From the NCBI GenBank assembly GCA_009392285.1, contig VFGU01000012.1, positions 228,045-269,253 of the forward strand: DNA of 41,209 bases, read 5' to 3'. Both the position numbers and the translations under genes were made by a program. The DNA is from SAR202 cluster bacterium (GTDB lineage: Bacteria; Chloroflexota; Dehalococcoidia; Lucifugimonadales; Lucifugimonadaceae). Positions 4,667 through 10,268 of the stretch are shown here, one piece after another. Numbering within the stretch: position 1 is the stretch's first letter; every line of letters begins with the position of its first letter. Under the pieces are notes generated by a model. The model was not told where the DNA came from. It searched no databases and saw nothing but the letters and a program-made list of their open reading frames with translations.

Positions 4667-7570
4667 TTAATCAATAATATTATCTGCAATTATTTCTAAT
4701 ACATGTTTTGGTTTGTGAGTAGAGAAATCTTCTATTTGGTGCCTACAAGAAACTCCCGTAATTGCGACTTGAGTATTTTTTTCAATATCATTTAGATAGG
4801 GGATTAGTCTATCATTAGCTATTTTTTTTGAGATATCGTAATGCTCTTTCTCATAGCCAAATGCACCAGCCATTCCACAACATCCTGATGGAATTTTTTC
4901 TACTTTTGAATTAGGTATGAGTTTTAAGGAATCTATAGATACATTTTCTCCCATAATAGTTTTTTCGTGGCAATGTATTTGAACCGCATATGATTTTTTT
5001 TCTAGGTTGCTTTTAAATTTAATTTTATTCGAATTAATAGGGTCAGCAATTATCTCCTGCAATAAATATGTATTATTAGAAATTAGATCCACCCTTTTAT
5101 CTTGTGGGAACATATCTGGGTATTCATCCTTTAAAGCTGATATGCAACTAGGCTCAACTCCCACTACAATTGCCCCTTCTTTTACTTGCTCATATAGTTT
5201 ATCTATATTGTATTTAGCATTGTTTTTCGCAGACTCTAGTAACCCCTTCGATATTAATGGCCTGCCACAACACTTTTTATCAATCAAAGTAACATTATAA
5301 TTTAAAGATTTTAGTATTTTTATAGCAGATAATCCTACTTCAGGATGATTATAATTGGTAAATGTATCATGAAAGAATACAGCCGTTTTGTTATTACTAT
5401 TTGAATCTGATTTATATAATTTCTCAAATGAATGAGAGGCTATCTTTGGAATATTTCTTCTTTTATCGATCTTTAACACATAATCTGAAATAAGTTTAAA
5501 AATAAATAATTTTCTAGTTAAGTTAAAAATACTTGGAAAGATTGATCCTATTTTATTAAGAATTGCTATATTGCCGGTTAATCTTGACCTAATAGGAATA
5601 TTATTTTTTTTATAATATTGATGTAAAAATTCATATTTGATCTTGGCCATATCTACTCCAGACGGACACTCTGACCTACAAGTTTTACACTCTAAGCATA
5701 AATCCAAAACATTAAATAATTTTTTAGAATTTAATTCTTTTATCGGGAGTTTACCTGATAATGCAGCTCTTAATGCATTTGCTCTTCCACGCGTTGAATC
5801 TACTTCATCTCTAGTTGCCATAAATGAAGGGCACATATACCCAGAGTTAATTTTTTTACAAGCAGCTTGACCGTTGCACATTTCGACAGCTTGAGCAAAC
5901 CCTCCCTCTTTTTCAAAAGAAAGTAAAGTATCTATCGTTTCAGTTTTATAATTTTTTCCGAACCTAAGATTAGAATCCATAGGAGGTGTTTCTATTATTT
6001 TTCCAGGATTCAATATATTTTTAGGATCAAATGCCTTTTTTAAATCTTTAAAAGCAGAATATACTTTTTCCCCATACATTTTCTTTGTCCATGCACCTCT
6101 TACAATCCCATCTCCATGTTCCCCACTAAATGCACCTCCAAATTCAAATACTAAATCAGAAATATCACTCGATATTTTTACCATCTTTTTGATATCAGTC
6201 TCTGACTTAAGGTTAATTAGTGGCCTTATATGAAGACATCCCACAGAAGCATGACCATAATATCCTGCTGTAGTTCCATTGCTTTTTACAATTTCATCAA
6301 ATCTTTTAACATATTCAGGTAATTTCTCAGGAGACACAGCAGTATCTTCAACAAAAGGAATTGCTTTGGCTTCTCCAGGTTTTTTCATAACTAAACCTAA
6401 ACCAGCCTTTCTCATATTCCATACTTTAGTTTGCTGGCTTGAGTCCATCACAATTGTGCTCGATATAGCTAATTTTGAATTTTGAATTTTTGAATTAAGT
6501 TTTTCTATTTTATCTTTTACTTCAAGTTCATTTTCACCATAAAATTCTGCAACTATTATATCTGTGGGGTTGCCTTTTAAGTAGTCAATTCCAGAAGCAA
6601 ATTCAGGAGATTTTTTTGCTTCATTGATAATAATTTCACCTATATGCTCTACCGCTGAGGGGCCAAATTCAAGAGCATGTATTGAAGCCTCCATTGATTT
6701 AATAATATCCGAAAATTCTATTACTAAAAGCCCTTTATTATTTGGGAGGTCTACTAAATTTAATTCTGCCTCTGTAATTGTGGCTAAAGTACCTTCAGAG
6801 CCGACTATTAACTTGGTTAAATCAACATACCCGCCTTTATTAATCTCGTCCAAATTATACCCACCGACCCTTCTTTGTATTTTTGGAAATTTCTTTTCTA
6901 ATTCATCTGTATATTCCTTAAATAGATTTAAAGAATTACTATAAATATTTGACTCCAAAGAACCCTTGTTTAGAAGACTTTCAAAACTATTAAATGATAA
7001 TTTTTCAAACTTATGATTATTGCCGTTTGAAAGGATAGTTTCTAGGCTATTAACATGATCAATTGTTTTTCCATATATTACAGAGTGCGCTCCACAAGAA
7101 TTATTTCCTATTACTCCACCTACAGTTGCTCTGTTTGTGGTGCTTGGATCGGGTGTAAACAGTAAATTCATAGGTTTTAGATAGTTATTTAATGTATCTA
7201 TAGTGATGCCAGGCTGTGTTATTATTTTTTTATTATTTTTATCAAAATCAATAACTGAATTTAAATATTTTGAAAAATCAATTACTATAGCTCTGTTCAC
7301 AGTTTGCCCAGACAGGCTTGACCCTCCTCCTCTTGGCAATATAGCAATATTATTTTCATCTGCGATTTGGACTATAGTTTTTACGTCATTAGTATTTTTT
7401 GGTATCGCTACACAAAGTGGAATTATTCTATATATGGAGGCATCTGTTGAATATATTTCCCTAGTAATTTCATCAAATTTAACTTCTCCGCTAATTTCTC
7501 TTTGAAGTGTCTTTTTAATAGAATCTTCTATTTCATCTACAGAGTAGTTATTTGATATTTTTTGAACCAT
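4667..7570 (-). CDS. FAD-linked oxidase / 4Fe-4S fusion, YdiJ-like D-2-hydroxyacid dehydrogenase
   Basis: 967 residues joining a GlcD-type FAD domain to a GlpC-type iron-sulfur domain. The FAD-binding PCMH fold shows PRGGGSSLSGQ at 79-89 and GNNSCGAHSVIYGKT at about 154-168; the FAD-oxidase C-terminal domain follows. A cysteine cluster CNGQAAC...MCPSF (about 563-582) and CLECKTCRSECPSG (about 622-636) bind Fe-S, and two CCG motifs (CCGRPLI near 767, CCGMAGAFGYE near 895) form the cysteine-rich domain. Length and order match E. coli YdiJ, reported to be a D-2-hydroxyglutarate dehydrogenase; D-lactate is an alternative substrate. Its start overlaps the end of the terC-like gene by 23 bases, so it is the last gene of the greA-terC operon. 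Probably membrane-associated, passing electrons to quinone or another carrier. Confidence 0.9.
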   Translation of the reverse strand: MVQKISNNYSVDEIEDSIKKTLQREISGEVKFDEITREIYSTDASIYRIIPLCVAIPKNTNDVKTIVQIADENNIAILPRGGGSSLSGQTVNRAIVIDFSKYLNSVIDFDKNNKKIITQPGITIDTLNNYLKPMNLLFTPDPSTTNRATVGGVIGNNSCGAHSVIYGKTIDHVNSLETILSNGNNHKFEKLSFNSFESLLNKGSLESNIYSNSLNLFKEYTDELEKKFPKIQRRVGGYNLDEINKGGYVDLTKLIVGSEGTLATITEAELNLVDLPNNKGLLVIEFSDIIKSMEASIHALEFGPSAVEHIGEIIINEAKKSPEFASGIDYLKGNPTDIIVAEFYGENELEVKDKIEKLNSKIQNSKLAISSTIVMDSSQQTKVWNMRKAGLGLVMKKPGEAKAIPFVEDTAVSPEKLPEYVKRFDEIVKSNGTTAGYYGHASVGCLHIRPLINLKSETDIKKMVKISSDISDLVFEFGGAFSGEHGDGIVRGAWTKKMYGEKVYSAFKDLKKAFDPKNILNPGKIIETPPMDSNLRFGKNYKTETIDTLLSFEKEGGFAQAVEMCNGQAACKKINSGYMCPSFMATRDEVDSTRGRANALRAALSGKLPIKELNSKKLFNVLDLCLECKTCRSECPSGVDMAKIKYEFLHQYYKKNNIPIRSRLTGNIAILNKIGSIFPSIFNLTRKLFIFKLISDYVLKIDKRRNIPKIASHSFEKLYKSDSNSNNKTAVFFHDTFTNYNHPEVGLSAIKILKSLNYNVTLIDKKCCGRPLISKGLLESAKNNAKYNIDKLYEQVKEGAIVVGVEPSCISALKDEYPDMFPQDKRVDLISNNTYLLQEIIADPINSNKIKFKSNLEKKSYAVQIHCHEKTIMGENVSIDSLKLIPNSKVEKIPSGCCGMAGAFGYEKEHYDISKKIANDRLIPYLNDIEKNTQVAITGVSCRHQIEDFSTHKPKHVLEIIADNIID

Positions 7571-8531
7571 CTTTTTCCTTAATTATATTAGAAAGTAAAA
7601 TACTAGCTGTAATAATACCTACTATAGTACCTAAGGAGATATACGTATTTATATGAAAATGGGTAATATATTCACTATTAATTAATGGACCTATTTTTTC
7701 GCCAAGATATTCCATTGACATTTTAAAGCCAATAAAAACTAATATTAAAGATAATCCGTACTTCAGAAATCTAAACTGATTCTGTATTTCTTGGATAAGG
7801 AAATATAATGGCCTCATACCAATAACTGCCATCATATTGGAAGTCCACACTATAAATACATCTTGAGTTATTCCAAAAATTGTTGGAATTGAATCAATTG
7901 CAAACACAATATCTGTGCTTGCAAGCACTATAACAACTAGAAACATTGGTGTGAATTTTTTAACACCATTAATGTTTGTTCTAAATCTTGATCCATCAAA
8001 TTCACTACTGACATTAACAAATTTATTTGCAATTCTATAAATTAAATTATTTTCAGGATTGGAGTCACTTTCTTTAACTAGAGAAATTTTTATTCCAGTA
8101 TAAATTAAGAAAATTCCCATAATCAACAATACCCATCCAAAATTTGAAAGAATAATAGATCCAAGAGCAATGAATATTGCCCTAGTTATTAAAGCTCCCA
8201 TTATTCCATAAGTTAAAGCTAGTGATTGTAATTTTGCTGGGATTTGGAAAAATTCAAAAATAATTATGAATACAAATAAATTATCGAAACATAAGGCTTT
8301 TTCTGCAATGTATCCAGCTAAAAAGGAAACCCCTCTTTCATTATTAGTCATTAATGACCCATCTTCTACAAAAAACCAGAGCGCCACAATCATTGATATA
8401 GATACCCAGCATAAACTCCAAATCAATGCTGATTTAAATTTATAAATTTTCCCTTTAGATATGTATAAGTCAAAAATAAGAAGTATTATTACAAATACAT
8501 TAAAGACTATCCAAGGGTAATAATCAGTCAT
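7548..8531 (-). CDS. TerC/Alx-family integral membrane protein, probable metal (Mn) transporter
   Basis: 327 residues with eight or nine membrane segments (among them about 6-24, 37-54, 84-96, 105-125, 130-150, 195-215, 255-272 and 294-312). The family signatures are present: CFDNLFVFIIIFEFF and STDIVFAIDSIPTIFGITQD followed by FIVWTSNMMAVIGMRPLYF, which carry the conserved membrane-buried acidic residues. Alx and related TerC proteins export Mn2+ or help load metal onto exported proteins. It begins two bases after the greA stop and overlaps the following dehydrogenase gene, so all three are co-transcribed. Metal specificity is inference from the family. Confidence 0.9.
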   Translation of the reverse strand: MTDYYPWIVFNVFVIILLIFDLYISKGKIYKFKSALIWSLCWVSISMIVALWFFVEDGSLMTNNERGVSFLAGYIAEKALCFDNLFVFIIIFEFFQIPAKLQSLALTYGIMGALITRAIFIALGSIILSNFGWVLLIMGIFLIYTGIKISLVKESDSNPENNLIYRIANKFVNVSSEFDGSRFRTNINGVKKFTPMFLVVIVLASTDIVFAIDSIPTIFGITQDVFIVWTSNMMAVIGMRPLYFLIQEIQNQFRFLKYGLSLILVFIGFKMSMEYLGEKIGPLINSEYITHFHINTYISLGTIVGIITASILLSNIIKEKDGSKNIK

Positions 8532-8533
8532 TA

Positions 8534-9400
8534 CTATCTATTTGAACTTGAGGTAATCTTATACTCTAATGTACCTGAAGGACTTTTAACACTAACAATT
8601 TCTCCTTTAGCTTTTCCAAGTATTGCTTTACCAACAGGAGAATCTGATGATATTTTTGAATTCAAAGGATCTGCTTCATGAAAATCCACTATTTGGAAAG
8701 AATGAACTTCTTTATTATCTTGGTTCTCAATAGTTACCTTTGTTCCAATATTTATTTTGCCTTTCAATAAGGATTGAGAGCCATCATCTATAATAATCGC
8801 ACCTCTCATTAAATTTTCTATATCTGTTATTTTAGCCATAACCATGCCTTGAGCTTCTCTGGCAGCCTCAAGAGGTGCATTTTCTCTTACGTCACCATCT
8901 GCTGCTGCATTTTGAATATCAACTGCTAAATCCATCTTTTGTTTATTTAACTTTTCTAATTGGCCAATTAAAGTTTTATATCTACTTCTTGTTAGTTTTG
9001 GCCCTTCTTCGAATGTAGAAACCTTATTCTTAGTTCTTTTATTAGTTAGGATTCTTTTAGATCTTAAGTGTGACGGAATATTTAGTTCATTTTTGATTAA
9101 TTCACTATTATGTAAAAAACTTAGAAACTTTTTTACAGAAGCAAGTCTAGATTGTGTATCAGTGTTAGCCATTCTAGAAGTAATTTGTTGGCTATAGTCT
9201 CCCACTTCAGGAGGCTTTAAATTTGATAATAATTTTTCTTCACCAATATTAGTAACAAAATCAGCTACAACAGCCCTCTCATTCATTCTCTCAGAAACTG
9301 GAATTGTTTTTACGTAGTACTTCAAAGCATCTATCATAGTAGATTCTGAAGTTAATTCCATTTCATTTTTTACTTCCTCTACTTTAGTCTTTTTTGCCAT
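8534..9400 (-). CDS. greA: GreA-type transcription elongation factor with an N-terminal recombinase-like core-binding domain
   Basis: 288 residues against about 158 for ordinary GreA. Residues about 133-288 are GreA: a coiled coil whose tip reads GDVRENAPLEAA (169-180), keeping the acidic pair D170 and E173 that organises catalytic Mg in the RNA polymerase secondary channel, then the FKBP-like C-terminal domain. It should rescue backtracked polymerase by stimulating transcript cleavage. Residues about 38-117 are extra and read like the SAM-like core-binding domain of tyrosine recombinases (LKPPEVGDYSQQI, then SVKKFLSFLHNSELI), but no catalytic recombinase domain follows. A basic linker (SKRILTNKRTKNK) joins the halves. 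First gene of a leftward operon with terC-like and ydiJ-like genes. GreA function is firm; the role of the extra domain is unknown. Confidence 0.9.
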   Translation of the reverse strand: MAKKTKVEEVKNEMELTSESTMIDALKYYVKTIPVSERMNERAVVADFVTNIGEEKLLSNLKPPEVGDYSQQITSRMANTDTQSRLASVKKFLSFLHNSELIKNELNIPSHLRSKRILTNKRTKNKVSTFEEGPKLTRSRYKTLIGQLEKLNKQKMDLAVDIQNAAADGDVRENAPLEAAREAQGMVMAKITDIENLMRGAIIIDDGSQSLLKGKINIGTKVTIENQDNKEVHSFQIVDFHEADPLNSKISSDSPVGKAILGKAKGEIVSVKSPSGTLEYKITSSSNR

Positions 9401-9473
9401 TTTCTATTCCTATATATAATGTTTTTTTGCCAGTAGTAGTAAACTATTGAAAGTTAGATTACAATATACGAGT

Positions 9474-9502
9474 TTTACAAGAGAATATTATAGTCCTATA
9501 AA
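9474..9502 (+). promoter_or_regulatory. Candidate sigma70-type promoter for rpmH and downstream genes
   Basis: TTTACA at 9474-9479 and TATAAA at 9497-9502 are 17 bases apart, predicting a start near 9509 and a leader of about 48 bases. Each hexamer has five of six consensus bases. Confidence 0.55.
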
Positions 9503-9516
9503 GGATTAAACAACAA
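9487..9516 (-). promoter_or_regulatory. Candidate sigma70-type promoter for the greA operon
   Basis: On the minus strand a -35 TTGTTG (9516-9511) and a -10 TATAAT (9492-9487) are 18 bases apart, predicting a start near 9480 and a leader of about 80 bases before greA. It overlaps the opposing rpmH promoter. Sequence match only. Confidence 0.45.
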
Positions 9517-9556
9517 CAATAAGAAATATATATTAATTTTAAGTACGTGACTCGAG

Positions 9557-9706
9557 ATGACTAAGAGAACATATCAACCAAAAAAAAGAAAAAGAGCAAG
9601 AACTCATGGTTTTCGTGTGAGAATGAGAACTAAAAGTGGAAGAAATATTCTTAAAAGAAGGCGAGTCCGAGGAAGGAAGCTTTTAACTGTTGTTTCAAAA
9701 CAATAG
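9557..9706 (+). CDS. rpmH: 50S ribosomal protein L34
   Basis: 49 residues, rich in Arg and Lys: [20 protein letters not shown] opens the protein, followed by the conserved [20 protein letters not shown] core. L34 binds 23S rRNA and is an early marker of the rpmH-rnpA-yidD-yidC cluster. The rnpA gene starts nine bases downstream, the usual pairing. Only a weak ribosome-binding site (CTCGAG) precedes the ATG. No dnaA gene or DnaA-box cluster lies next to it, unlike bacteria whose origin adjoins rpmH. Confidence 0.97.
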
Positions 9707-9715
9707 TTTAAACCT

Positions 9716-10063
9716 TTGATTTCAATTGAAGTCATAAGAAAATCTAAAGAATTTCTAGAGATAATTTCGAATGGTAATAAATTTACTAGACCTGGAATTG
9801 TTATTTATTATTTAAGACCTAATGGGCTTGATAAATTTAGAGTAGGAATTTCTGTAAAGAAGCAAGTTGGTAACTCAGTAGTTAGAAATAAACTAAGAAG
9901 ACAAATTAGGAGCTTATTAAGAGATTTGCCAACTAGATTTAATGAAGTTTCGATGGTCTTAATAGTTATGAAAAATAATCAAGGTTTAGATTATTCTTAT
10001 ATTAAGAATATTCTAGATGAATTTGATGGCCTGATCTCTAGAGTTAGCAAAAATAATGTTTAA
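9716..10063 (+). CDS. rnpA: Ribonuclease P protein component
   Basis: 115 residues. The RNR signature is VVRNKLRRQIRSLLRD (55-70), a basic helix that contacts the P RNA; VGISVKKQVG precedes it as usual. With P RNA it matures the 5' ends of tRNAs. The only start near the beginning of the conserved fold is TTG at 9716, nine bases after rpmH; no ATG or GTG is suitably placed. It overlaps yidD by eight bases. Confidence 0.95.
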   Translation: MISIEVIRKSKEFLEIISNGNKFTRPGIVIYYLRPNGLDKFRVGISVKKQVGNSVVRNKLRRQIRSLLRDLPTRFNEVSMVLIVMKNNQGLDYSYIKNILDEFDGLISRVSKNNV

Positions 10064-10268
10064 AAAAATTATATTAAAATTTATAAAATTATACATCTTG
10101 ATTGCTTCTCCTTATATTGGAGGGAATTGTAAATATACCCCTTCATGTTCAAATTATGGTCATCAAGCAGTAGAAAAGCATGGAGCCCTAATAGGATCTT
10201 GGATGATTTTTGTTAGATTATTTAAATGCAATCCATTTGCAAAGGGAGGATATGATCCAGTTCGATGA
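10056..10268 (+). CDS. yidD: Membrane protein insertion efficiency factor YidD
   Basis: 70 residues with the family pattern GGNCKYTPSCSNYGHQAVEKHG and a KCNPFAKGGYDPV end. YidD is a small, inner-face membrane-associated protein that helps YidC-dependent insertion. It overlaps rnpA by eight bases and the following lipoprotein gene by four (ATGA), so translation is coupled along the operon. Confidence 0.96.
   Translation: MFKKIILKFIKLYILIASPYIGGNCKYTPSCSNYGHQAVEKHGALIGSWMIFVRLFKCNPFAKGGYDPVR

What the first reader, a model, noticed from the sequence alone, without database searches (positions are those of the whole stretch)
8534..9400. GreA fused to a tyrosine-recombinase-like core-binding domain
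The GreA part (from about residue 133) is complete, including the acidic tip pair. About 80 extra N-terminal residues have the pattern of the SAM-like DNA core-binding domain of XerC/D-type recombinases: a helix, LKPPEVGDYSQQI, then a basic SVKKFLSFLHNSELI helix. No recombinase catalytic domain is present. A cleavage factor that carries its own DNA-binding module could be directed to particular DNA or to the upstream fork of transcription. I think longer GreA proteins may exist in other Chloroflexota, but I know of no function for the extension.
Basis: partly seen in the sequence, partly recalled or inferred. Interest (0 to 1): 0.6.

Follow-up and report, generated by a model that had tools for sequence, protein, structure and literature searches.

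The report
GreA with a recombinase-type DNA-binding domain
In a large group of mostly uncultured Chloroflexota bacteria, the main RNA-cleavage rescue factor of RNA polymerase (GreA) carries, on a short flexible tether, a DNA-binding-type domain descended from site-specific recombinases, which may let it hold on to DNA while it rescues stalled polymerases.

Summary
The finding holds. The 288-residue ORF (8534-9400, minus strand) is a complete GreA (residues 136-284, acidic pair D170/E173) preceded by a conserved four-helix domain (residues 20-117) and a flexible basic linker of about 20 residues. The extra domain is homologous to the core-binding (Phage_int_SAM-like) domain of XerC/XerD and lambda-type tyrosine recombinases. 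Predicted fold, profile-profile comparison, curated XerC/XerD models and genome-wide scans all agree, and no catalytic recombinase domain is present. The fusion is not local: 101 of 119 sampled genomes of the class (Dehalococcoidia/SAR202, probably including Dehalococcoides) and about 29 of 177 from other classes have it. One origin of the fusion is not rejected. All 112 extended GreAs keep the catalytic D..E pair. Unextended GreA paralogs of the same class have lost it (0 of 50 intact), so the extended protein is the presumed working cleavage factor. The domain is under purifying selection, with invariant basic residues on helix 4 and its tail. The most likely function, which is inferred and untested, is a DNA-binding tether that holds GreA near transcribing polymerase. 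I found no description in the literature searched. This is a new domain architecture of a known factor.

The parts
8534..9400 (-). extended greA gene, 288 aa
9407..9411 (-). AGGAA ribosome-binding-like site before the ATG
   Evidence: read from sequence
9344..9400 (-). residues 1-19, variable N-terminal tail, mostly low confidence in the model
9050..9343 (-). residues 20-117, recombinase-type core-binding (Phage_int_SAM-like) domain, helices 22-32, 35-52, 63-76, 79-98
9107..9166 (-). helix 4 (residues 79-98) with conserved basic residues R85 (90% K/R) and K90 (100% K/R), aligned with the basic residues of the XerC/D 'ARKLaAlK/RSFF' helix
9053..9082 (-). residues 107-116, conserved tail NLAxHLRxRK (H111, R113 nearly invariant), equivalent to the integrase NPaxxvrxPk tail
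8996..9049 (-). residues 118-135, flexible basic linker, low pLDDT; 18-27 residues in nearly all relatives
8795..8995 (-). GreA N-terminal coiled coil (residues 136-202)
8882..8893 (-). catalytic tip D170-V-R-E173 (equivalent to E. coli GreA D41/E44)
8549..8764 (-). GreA C-terminal RNA-polymerase-binding domain (residues 213-284)

Best explanation
This is the working transcript-cleavage factor GreA of this bacterial class, to which the N-terminal core-binding domain of a XerC/XerD-like tyrosine recombinase was joined, probably once, early in the lineage. SHOWN BY COMPUTATION: the domain's homology and fold; its conservation under purifying selection; the retained catalytic pair; the flexible linker; the loss of the catalytic pair in the unextended paralogs. 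INFERRED: the GreA part enters the RNA polymerase secondary channel and triggers cleavage of backtracked RNA as in E. coli. The added domain stays outside the polymerase on its tether and binds duplex DNA through helix 4 and the basic tail, with little or moderate sequence preference. That would raise the local concentration and residence time of GreA at polymerases on the chromosome, or let it act on polymerases stalled near particular DNA structures. My estimates: domain identity 0.97; main cleavage factor 0.85; DNA binding by the extension 0.6.
For: Domain identity: AlphaFold2 gives four helices at pLDDT about 80-93. Foldseek's 28 best PDB hits are all tyrosine-recombinase-type structures (including a phage repressor of that fold), the top one with probability 1.00. 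VIA-align gives Z 13.4 to 3nrw, 11.8 to lambda Int and 9.8 to XerD, and the first row outside that group is Z 7.4. NCBIfam XerD matches 28 and XerC 25 of 45 members at E<=1, best 9e-5. In 14 whole genomes all 7 non-GreA hits of the domain profile are recombinases, matched in their N-domain. Profile-profile probability is 94.6% with seven such recombinases and 96.4% (E 1e-9) with 30 recombinases chosen independently of the extension; that independent profile gives 95 of 112 extensions >=10 bits against 2 of 2240 shuffled and 0 of 2437 neighbouring ORFs. Constraint: dN/dS of the domain 0.01-0.12; K/R at position 90 in 112 of 112 and at 113 in 109 of 109 sequences. Main factor: D..E in 112 of 112 extended proteins against 0 of 50 unextended paralogs of the class; it is the only GreA found in the window's genome (56% complete) and the only match in every same-family genome with a match. 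D41 and E44 activate cleavage in E. coli (PMC7527559).
Against: DNA binding is not shown. The best-conserved positions also include buried ones. Net charge of the domain is only modest (mean +4, range -1 to +10). Two class lineages kept an extended-type GreA without the domain (L221, L222), so it is dispensable at least there. Domain orientation relative to GreA is undefined (pTM 0.40). No single sequence reaches a Pfam match at a convincing level for the domain.
Confidence: 0.6

Rival explanations
1. The domain lost DNA binding and now works as a protein-protein module, docking on RNA polymerase or a partner, much as the unrelated four-helix N-terminal domain of eukaryotic TFIIS does (analogy from general knowledge).
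For: The most conserved positions include non-basic residues (G53, Y69, H111), and the domain diverges strongly from recombinases. The modest net charge fits.
Against: Basic residues on helix 4 and the tail, shared in position with recombinases, are kept in nearly all of the 112 sequences. The linker is basic and disordered.
Confidence: 0.25
2. The domain recognises a specific DNA sequence or structure (for example dif-like sites, forks or junctions) and directs cleavage to polymerases there.
For: The parent domains help recognise recombination sites. Part of helix 4 conservation matches the recombinase helix.
Against: Core-binding domains alone usually have weak specificity (general knowledge). 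No site or co-located recombinase gene was seen; the neighbourhood in close relatives is terC and the rpmH-rnpA-yidD-yidC-jag group.
Confidence: 0.15
3. The extension is autoinhibitory: it covers the acidic tip or the polymerase-binding face until DNA or polymerase displaces it.
For: Flexible tether; a single catalytic GreA might need control.
Against: No stable interdomain contact in the model (pTM 0.40).
Confidence: 0.08
4. The resemblance to recombinases is a chance likeness of small helical bundles.
For: Helical bundles often score middling in fold searches (note).
Against: Sequence-only tests that know nothing of fold agree: curated XerC/XerD models, genome-wide scans, profile-profile comparison with shuffled controls.
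Confidence: 0.02

Closest known systems
Transcription elongation factor GreA (Pfam PF03449 + PF01272; E. coli GreA)
   Same: Complete coiled coil, acidic tip pair and C-terminal domain, both Pfam domains above cut-off.
   Different: Extra N-terminal recombinase-type core-binding domain and linker; divergent enough to fall below NCBIfam's greA cut-offs (128.2 against 145 bits).
Core-binding / Phage_int_SAM-like domain of tyrosine recombinases (XerC, XerD, XerA, lambda Int)
   Same: Fold, collinear sequence profile, basic residues of helix 4 and basic tail.
   Different: No catalytic PF00589 domain; the recombinase 'TxxAYxxDL' and 'NP' motifs are replaced by 'ExxxFVRWxG' and 'NLAxHLRxRK' in most members (some divergent members, e.g. 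L145 and L253, keep NP/DP).
Gfh1 and other GreA homologues without catalytic pair
   Same: Same GreA core; the unextended paralogs of this class resemble them in having lost the D..E pair.
   Different: The extended protein keeps D..E in every case.
Other reported GreA fusions: long GreA proteins in NCBIfam (PRK14720, PRK06330) and EAD/TPR-GreA/B-C-PIN conflict proteins (PMC8195603)
   Same: A GreA part joined to extra domains.
   Different: The window's extension alone matches none of the NCBIfam models; the conflict proteins use only the GreA/B C-terminal domain with other partners.

Membership tests
GreA/GreB transcript cleavage factors | GreA_GreB_N and GreA_GreB domains in order | tested here: met
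   both above Pfam gathering scores
GreA/GreB transcript cleavage factors | acidic pair at coiled-coil tip | tested here: met
   D170, E173; D..E in 112 of 112 extended homologues
GreA/GreB transcript cleavage factors | stimulates RNA cleavage by backtracked RNA polymerase | not testable with these tools
   needs biochemistry
Core-binding (Phage_int_SAM-like) domain superfamily | four-helix SAM-like fold | tested here: met
   (predicted model)
Core-binding (Phage_int_SAM-like) domain superfamily | sequence profile similarity to recombinase N-domains | tested here: met
   (profile level; best single-member Pfam match E 5e-4 and none for the window itself)
Core-binding (Phage_int_SAM-like) domain superfamily | binds DNA | not testable with these tools
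   inferred from conserved basic residues only
Tyrosine recombinases (XerC/XerD/integrases) | catalytic domain PF00589 with R..H-x-x-R..Y residues | tested here: not met
   absent; so this is not a recombinase
Gfh1-like anti-cleavage factors | catalytic GreA D..E pair replaced | tested here: not met
   pair intact
Long GreA fusions PRK14720 / PRK06330 | shared N-terminal region | tested here: inconclusive
   extension alone gave no match to these models, a sequence-only test

The most novel reading that the evidence does not exclude
An entire bacterial class relies on a GreA that is physically anchored to DNA by a captured recombinase domain, a mode of action not described for any bacterial cleavage factor in the literature searched, while its unextended paralog became a non-cleaving regulator of the same channel.
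Probability: 0.4. Interest if true: 0.75.

Novelty: new variant of a known kind. Interest (0 to 1): 0.5.

Why it matters
GreA is one of the best-studied factors acting on bacterial RNA polymerase, and it is thought to reach the enzyme by free diffusion. A conserved, selected DNA-binding-type domain on the only cleavage-competent GreA of a globally abundant class (SAR202 and other Dehalococcoidia) would mean that cleavage factors can be held on the template. It would also be a clear case of a recombinase domain taken over for a housekeeping role in transcription. It is directly testable with purified proteins, because E. coli greA mutants and polymerase assays exist. It also suggests that some annotations start GreA too late: the acetyl-lysine K17 reported for Dehalococcoides mccartyi CBDB1 GreA (PMC7918482) fits only numbering from an internal ATG.

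Tried and rejected
Pfam on the single window extension gave nothing, so profiles were used. The pTM of the full-length model is too low to place the domain against GreA. Gene neighbourhood gave no functional lead: terC, an FAD/Fe-S oxidoreductase and the rpmH-rnpA-yidD-yidC-jag group. Phage records gave no match to the extension and none of the plasmid records covered most of the protein, so there is no sign of a mobile-element version. The reciprocal recombinase profile was partly circular, because its members were found with the extension profile; it was repeated with 30 recombinases chosen by the XerD model alone. A test of one clade for all extended GreAs was not rejected (p-AU 0.55, likelihood slightly higher than the free tree), so several independent fusions are not needed, although L145, L162 and L202 sit apart in the free tree. 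Literature searches found no report of this fusion; the library lacks most subscription papers. Occurrence outside Chloroflexota was not tested systematically.

Full report
WHAT IS THERE. The ORF at 8534-9400 (minus strand, 288 aa, ATG with an AGGAA site upstream) contains a complete GreA: GreA_GreB_N at residues 136-202 and GreA_GreB at 213-284, both above Pfam cut-off. The tip reads D170-V-R-E173. It is the only GreA found in the window's genome, which is 56% complete. Residues 1-130 match nothing in Pfam as a single sequence. NCBIfam gives only a weak match to a site-specific integrase model (E 0.016).

THE EXTENSION IS A REAL DOMAIN. It is conserved in homologues of the same family and order and in 80 named genomes labelled Dehalococcoidia, SAR202 or Chloroflexi, including Candidatus Lucifugimonas marina. 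Between close relatives dN/dS over residues 20-117 is 0.01-0.12 where dS could be computed, similar to the GreA part (0.04-0.12), while residues 1-19 are looser. AlphaFold2 predicts helices at 22-32, 35-52, 63-76 and 79-98 with high confidence, a disordered stretch at 118-131, then GreA; the relative placement is undefined (pTM 0.40).

IT IS A RECOMBINASE-TYPE CORE-BINDING DOMAIN. Fold: Foldseek's best PDB hits are N-domains of integrases, Tn1549 integrase, XerA and lambda integrase. VIA-align gives Z 13.4 (3nrw, 96 residues, 2.0 A), 11.8 (lambda Int) and 9.8 (XerD, XerA), and the first row outside the group is Z 7.4. Sequence: of 45 members, 28 match NCBIfam XerD and 25 XerC at E<=1, best 9e-5, and 8 match Phage_int_SAM_1, best 5e-4. 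When the domain profile was run over 14 whole genomes, all seven hits outside GreA were proteins with a Pfam integrase catalytic domain, matched in their N-domain. Over 301 genomes of the phylum the next hits after GreA (down to E 1.6e-7) were mostly again recombinases. Two of the 20 hits examined were further, more divergent extended GreAs (L253, L254) that still carry the 'DP'/'NP' of integrases, and at least two were SAM-domain proteins with a MerR domain and no catalytic domain (L246, L248). A profile of 30 recombinases chosen without reference to the extension scores 95 of 112 extensions at 10 bits or more, against 2 of 2240 shuffled extensions and 0 of 2437 neighbouring ORFs, and aligns with the extension profile at 96.4% probability.

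DISTRIBUTION AND ORIGIN. By my count of the listed matches, 101 of 119 sampled genomes of the class have the extended form and about 29 of 177 genomes of other classes. A tree of GreA cores puts 68 of 71 extended-type proteins together. One clade for all of them is not rejected and has a slightly higher likelihood, so a single fusion is the simplest reading. Two lineages have lost the domain but kept the extended-type core (L221, L222).

DIVISION OF LABOUR. All 112 extended GreAs have D..E at the tip. Of 50 unextended paralogs sampled in the class none has it; they read mostly G..D, G..N or S..N, with four D..D. (Three more class sequences without the domain do read D..E, but by sequence and tree they belong to the extended clade: the two domain losses and L236, which is cut by a contig end.) The three unextended paralogs from extension-bearing genomes of other classes read D..D, and 12 of 12 other unextended GreAs from the rest of the phylum read D..E or E..E. 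In E. coli D41 and E44 are the residues that activate cleavage (PMC7527559). The extended protein is therefore the presumed cleavage factor of the class; the other is degenerate, Gfh1-like in that respect. The paralogs are largely one clade, so this is few evolutionary events, not 50.

HOW IT PROBABLY WORKS. In GreA the N-terminus lies at the base of the coiled coil, outside the secondary channel (established knowledge; the globular domain stays outside). A domain tethered there by about 20 flexible residues would not block the channel and could reach nearby DNA or polymerase surface. Position 90 is K/R in every sequence, 85 in 90%, and 113, 115 and 116 are nearly always K/R. Positions 85 and 90 align with the basic residues of the recombinase helix 'ARKLaAlK/RSFF', the helix that faces DNA in structures of this family (general knowledge). 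I therefore favour a DNA tether (0.6), with a protein-docking role as the main rival (0.25). Nothing here shows DNA binding.

NOVELTY. Each part is known; the combination, its fixation across a class and the matching degeneration of the unextended paralog are not described in the papers I could search. K17 acetylation of D. mccartyi CBDB1 GreA (PMC7918482) fits residue 17 counted from an internal ATG (MTASGYKKLEDELSTLK, read from L041/L042), which suggests that the public annotation of that strain omits the extension; this is an inference from numbering.

Noticed in passing
L163-L174, L186-L191, L203-L237 (class genomes): Unextended GreA paralogs that lack the catalytic D..E pair coexist with the extended GreA; possible Gfh1-like regulators.
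   Followed up: yes
L221, L222: Extended-type GreA cores without the core-binding domain (L221 keeps only a basic tail), natural domain losses.
   Followed up: partly
L246:114-1325, L248:335-1438: Proteins with a Phage_int_SAM_1 domain joined to a MerR-type helix-turn-helix and no recombinase catalytic domain: another reuse of this domain, in another class of the phylum.
   Followed up: no
window 4667-10268 and loci L044-L123: Conserved order in close relatives: greA, terC-like gene, FAD/Fe-S oxidoreductase; divergently rnpA, yidD, a PQQ-repeat-like protein, yidC, jag.
   Followed up: partly
L041, L042 (probable Dehalococcoides): Published acetylation site K17 of CBDB1 GreA fits an internal ATG start, suggesting that the extension is missed in that annotation.
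   Followed up: partly
G045, G103, G133 (one family of the class): Two unextended GreAs and no extended one; tips G..E and D..D, so the fusion may have been lost and replaced there.
   Followed up: no
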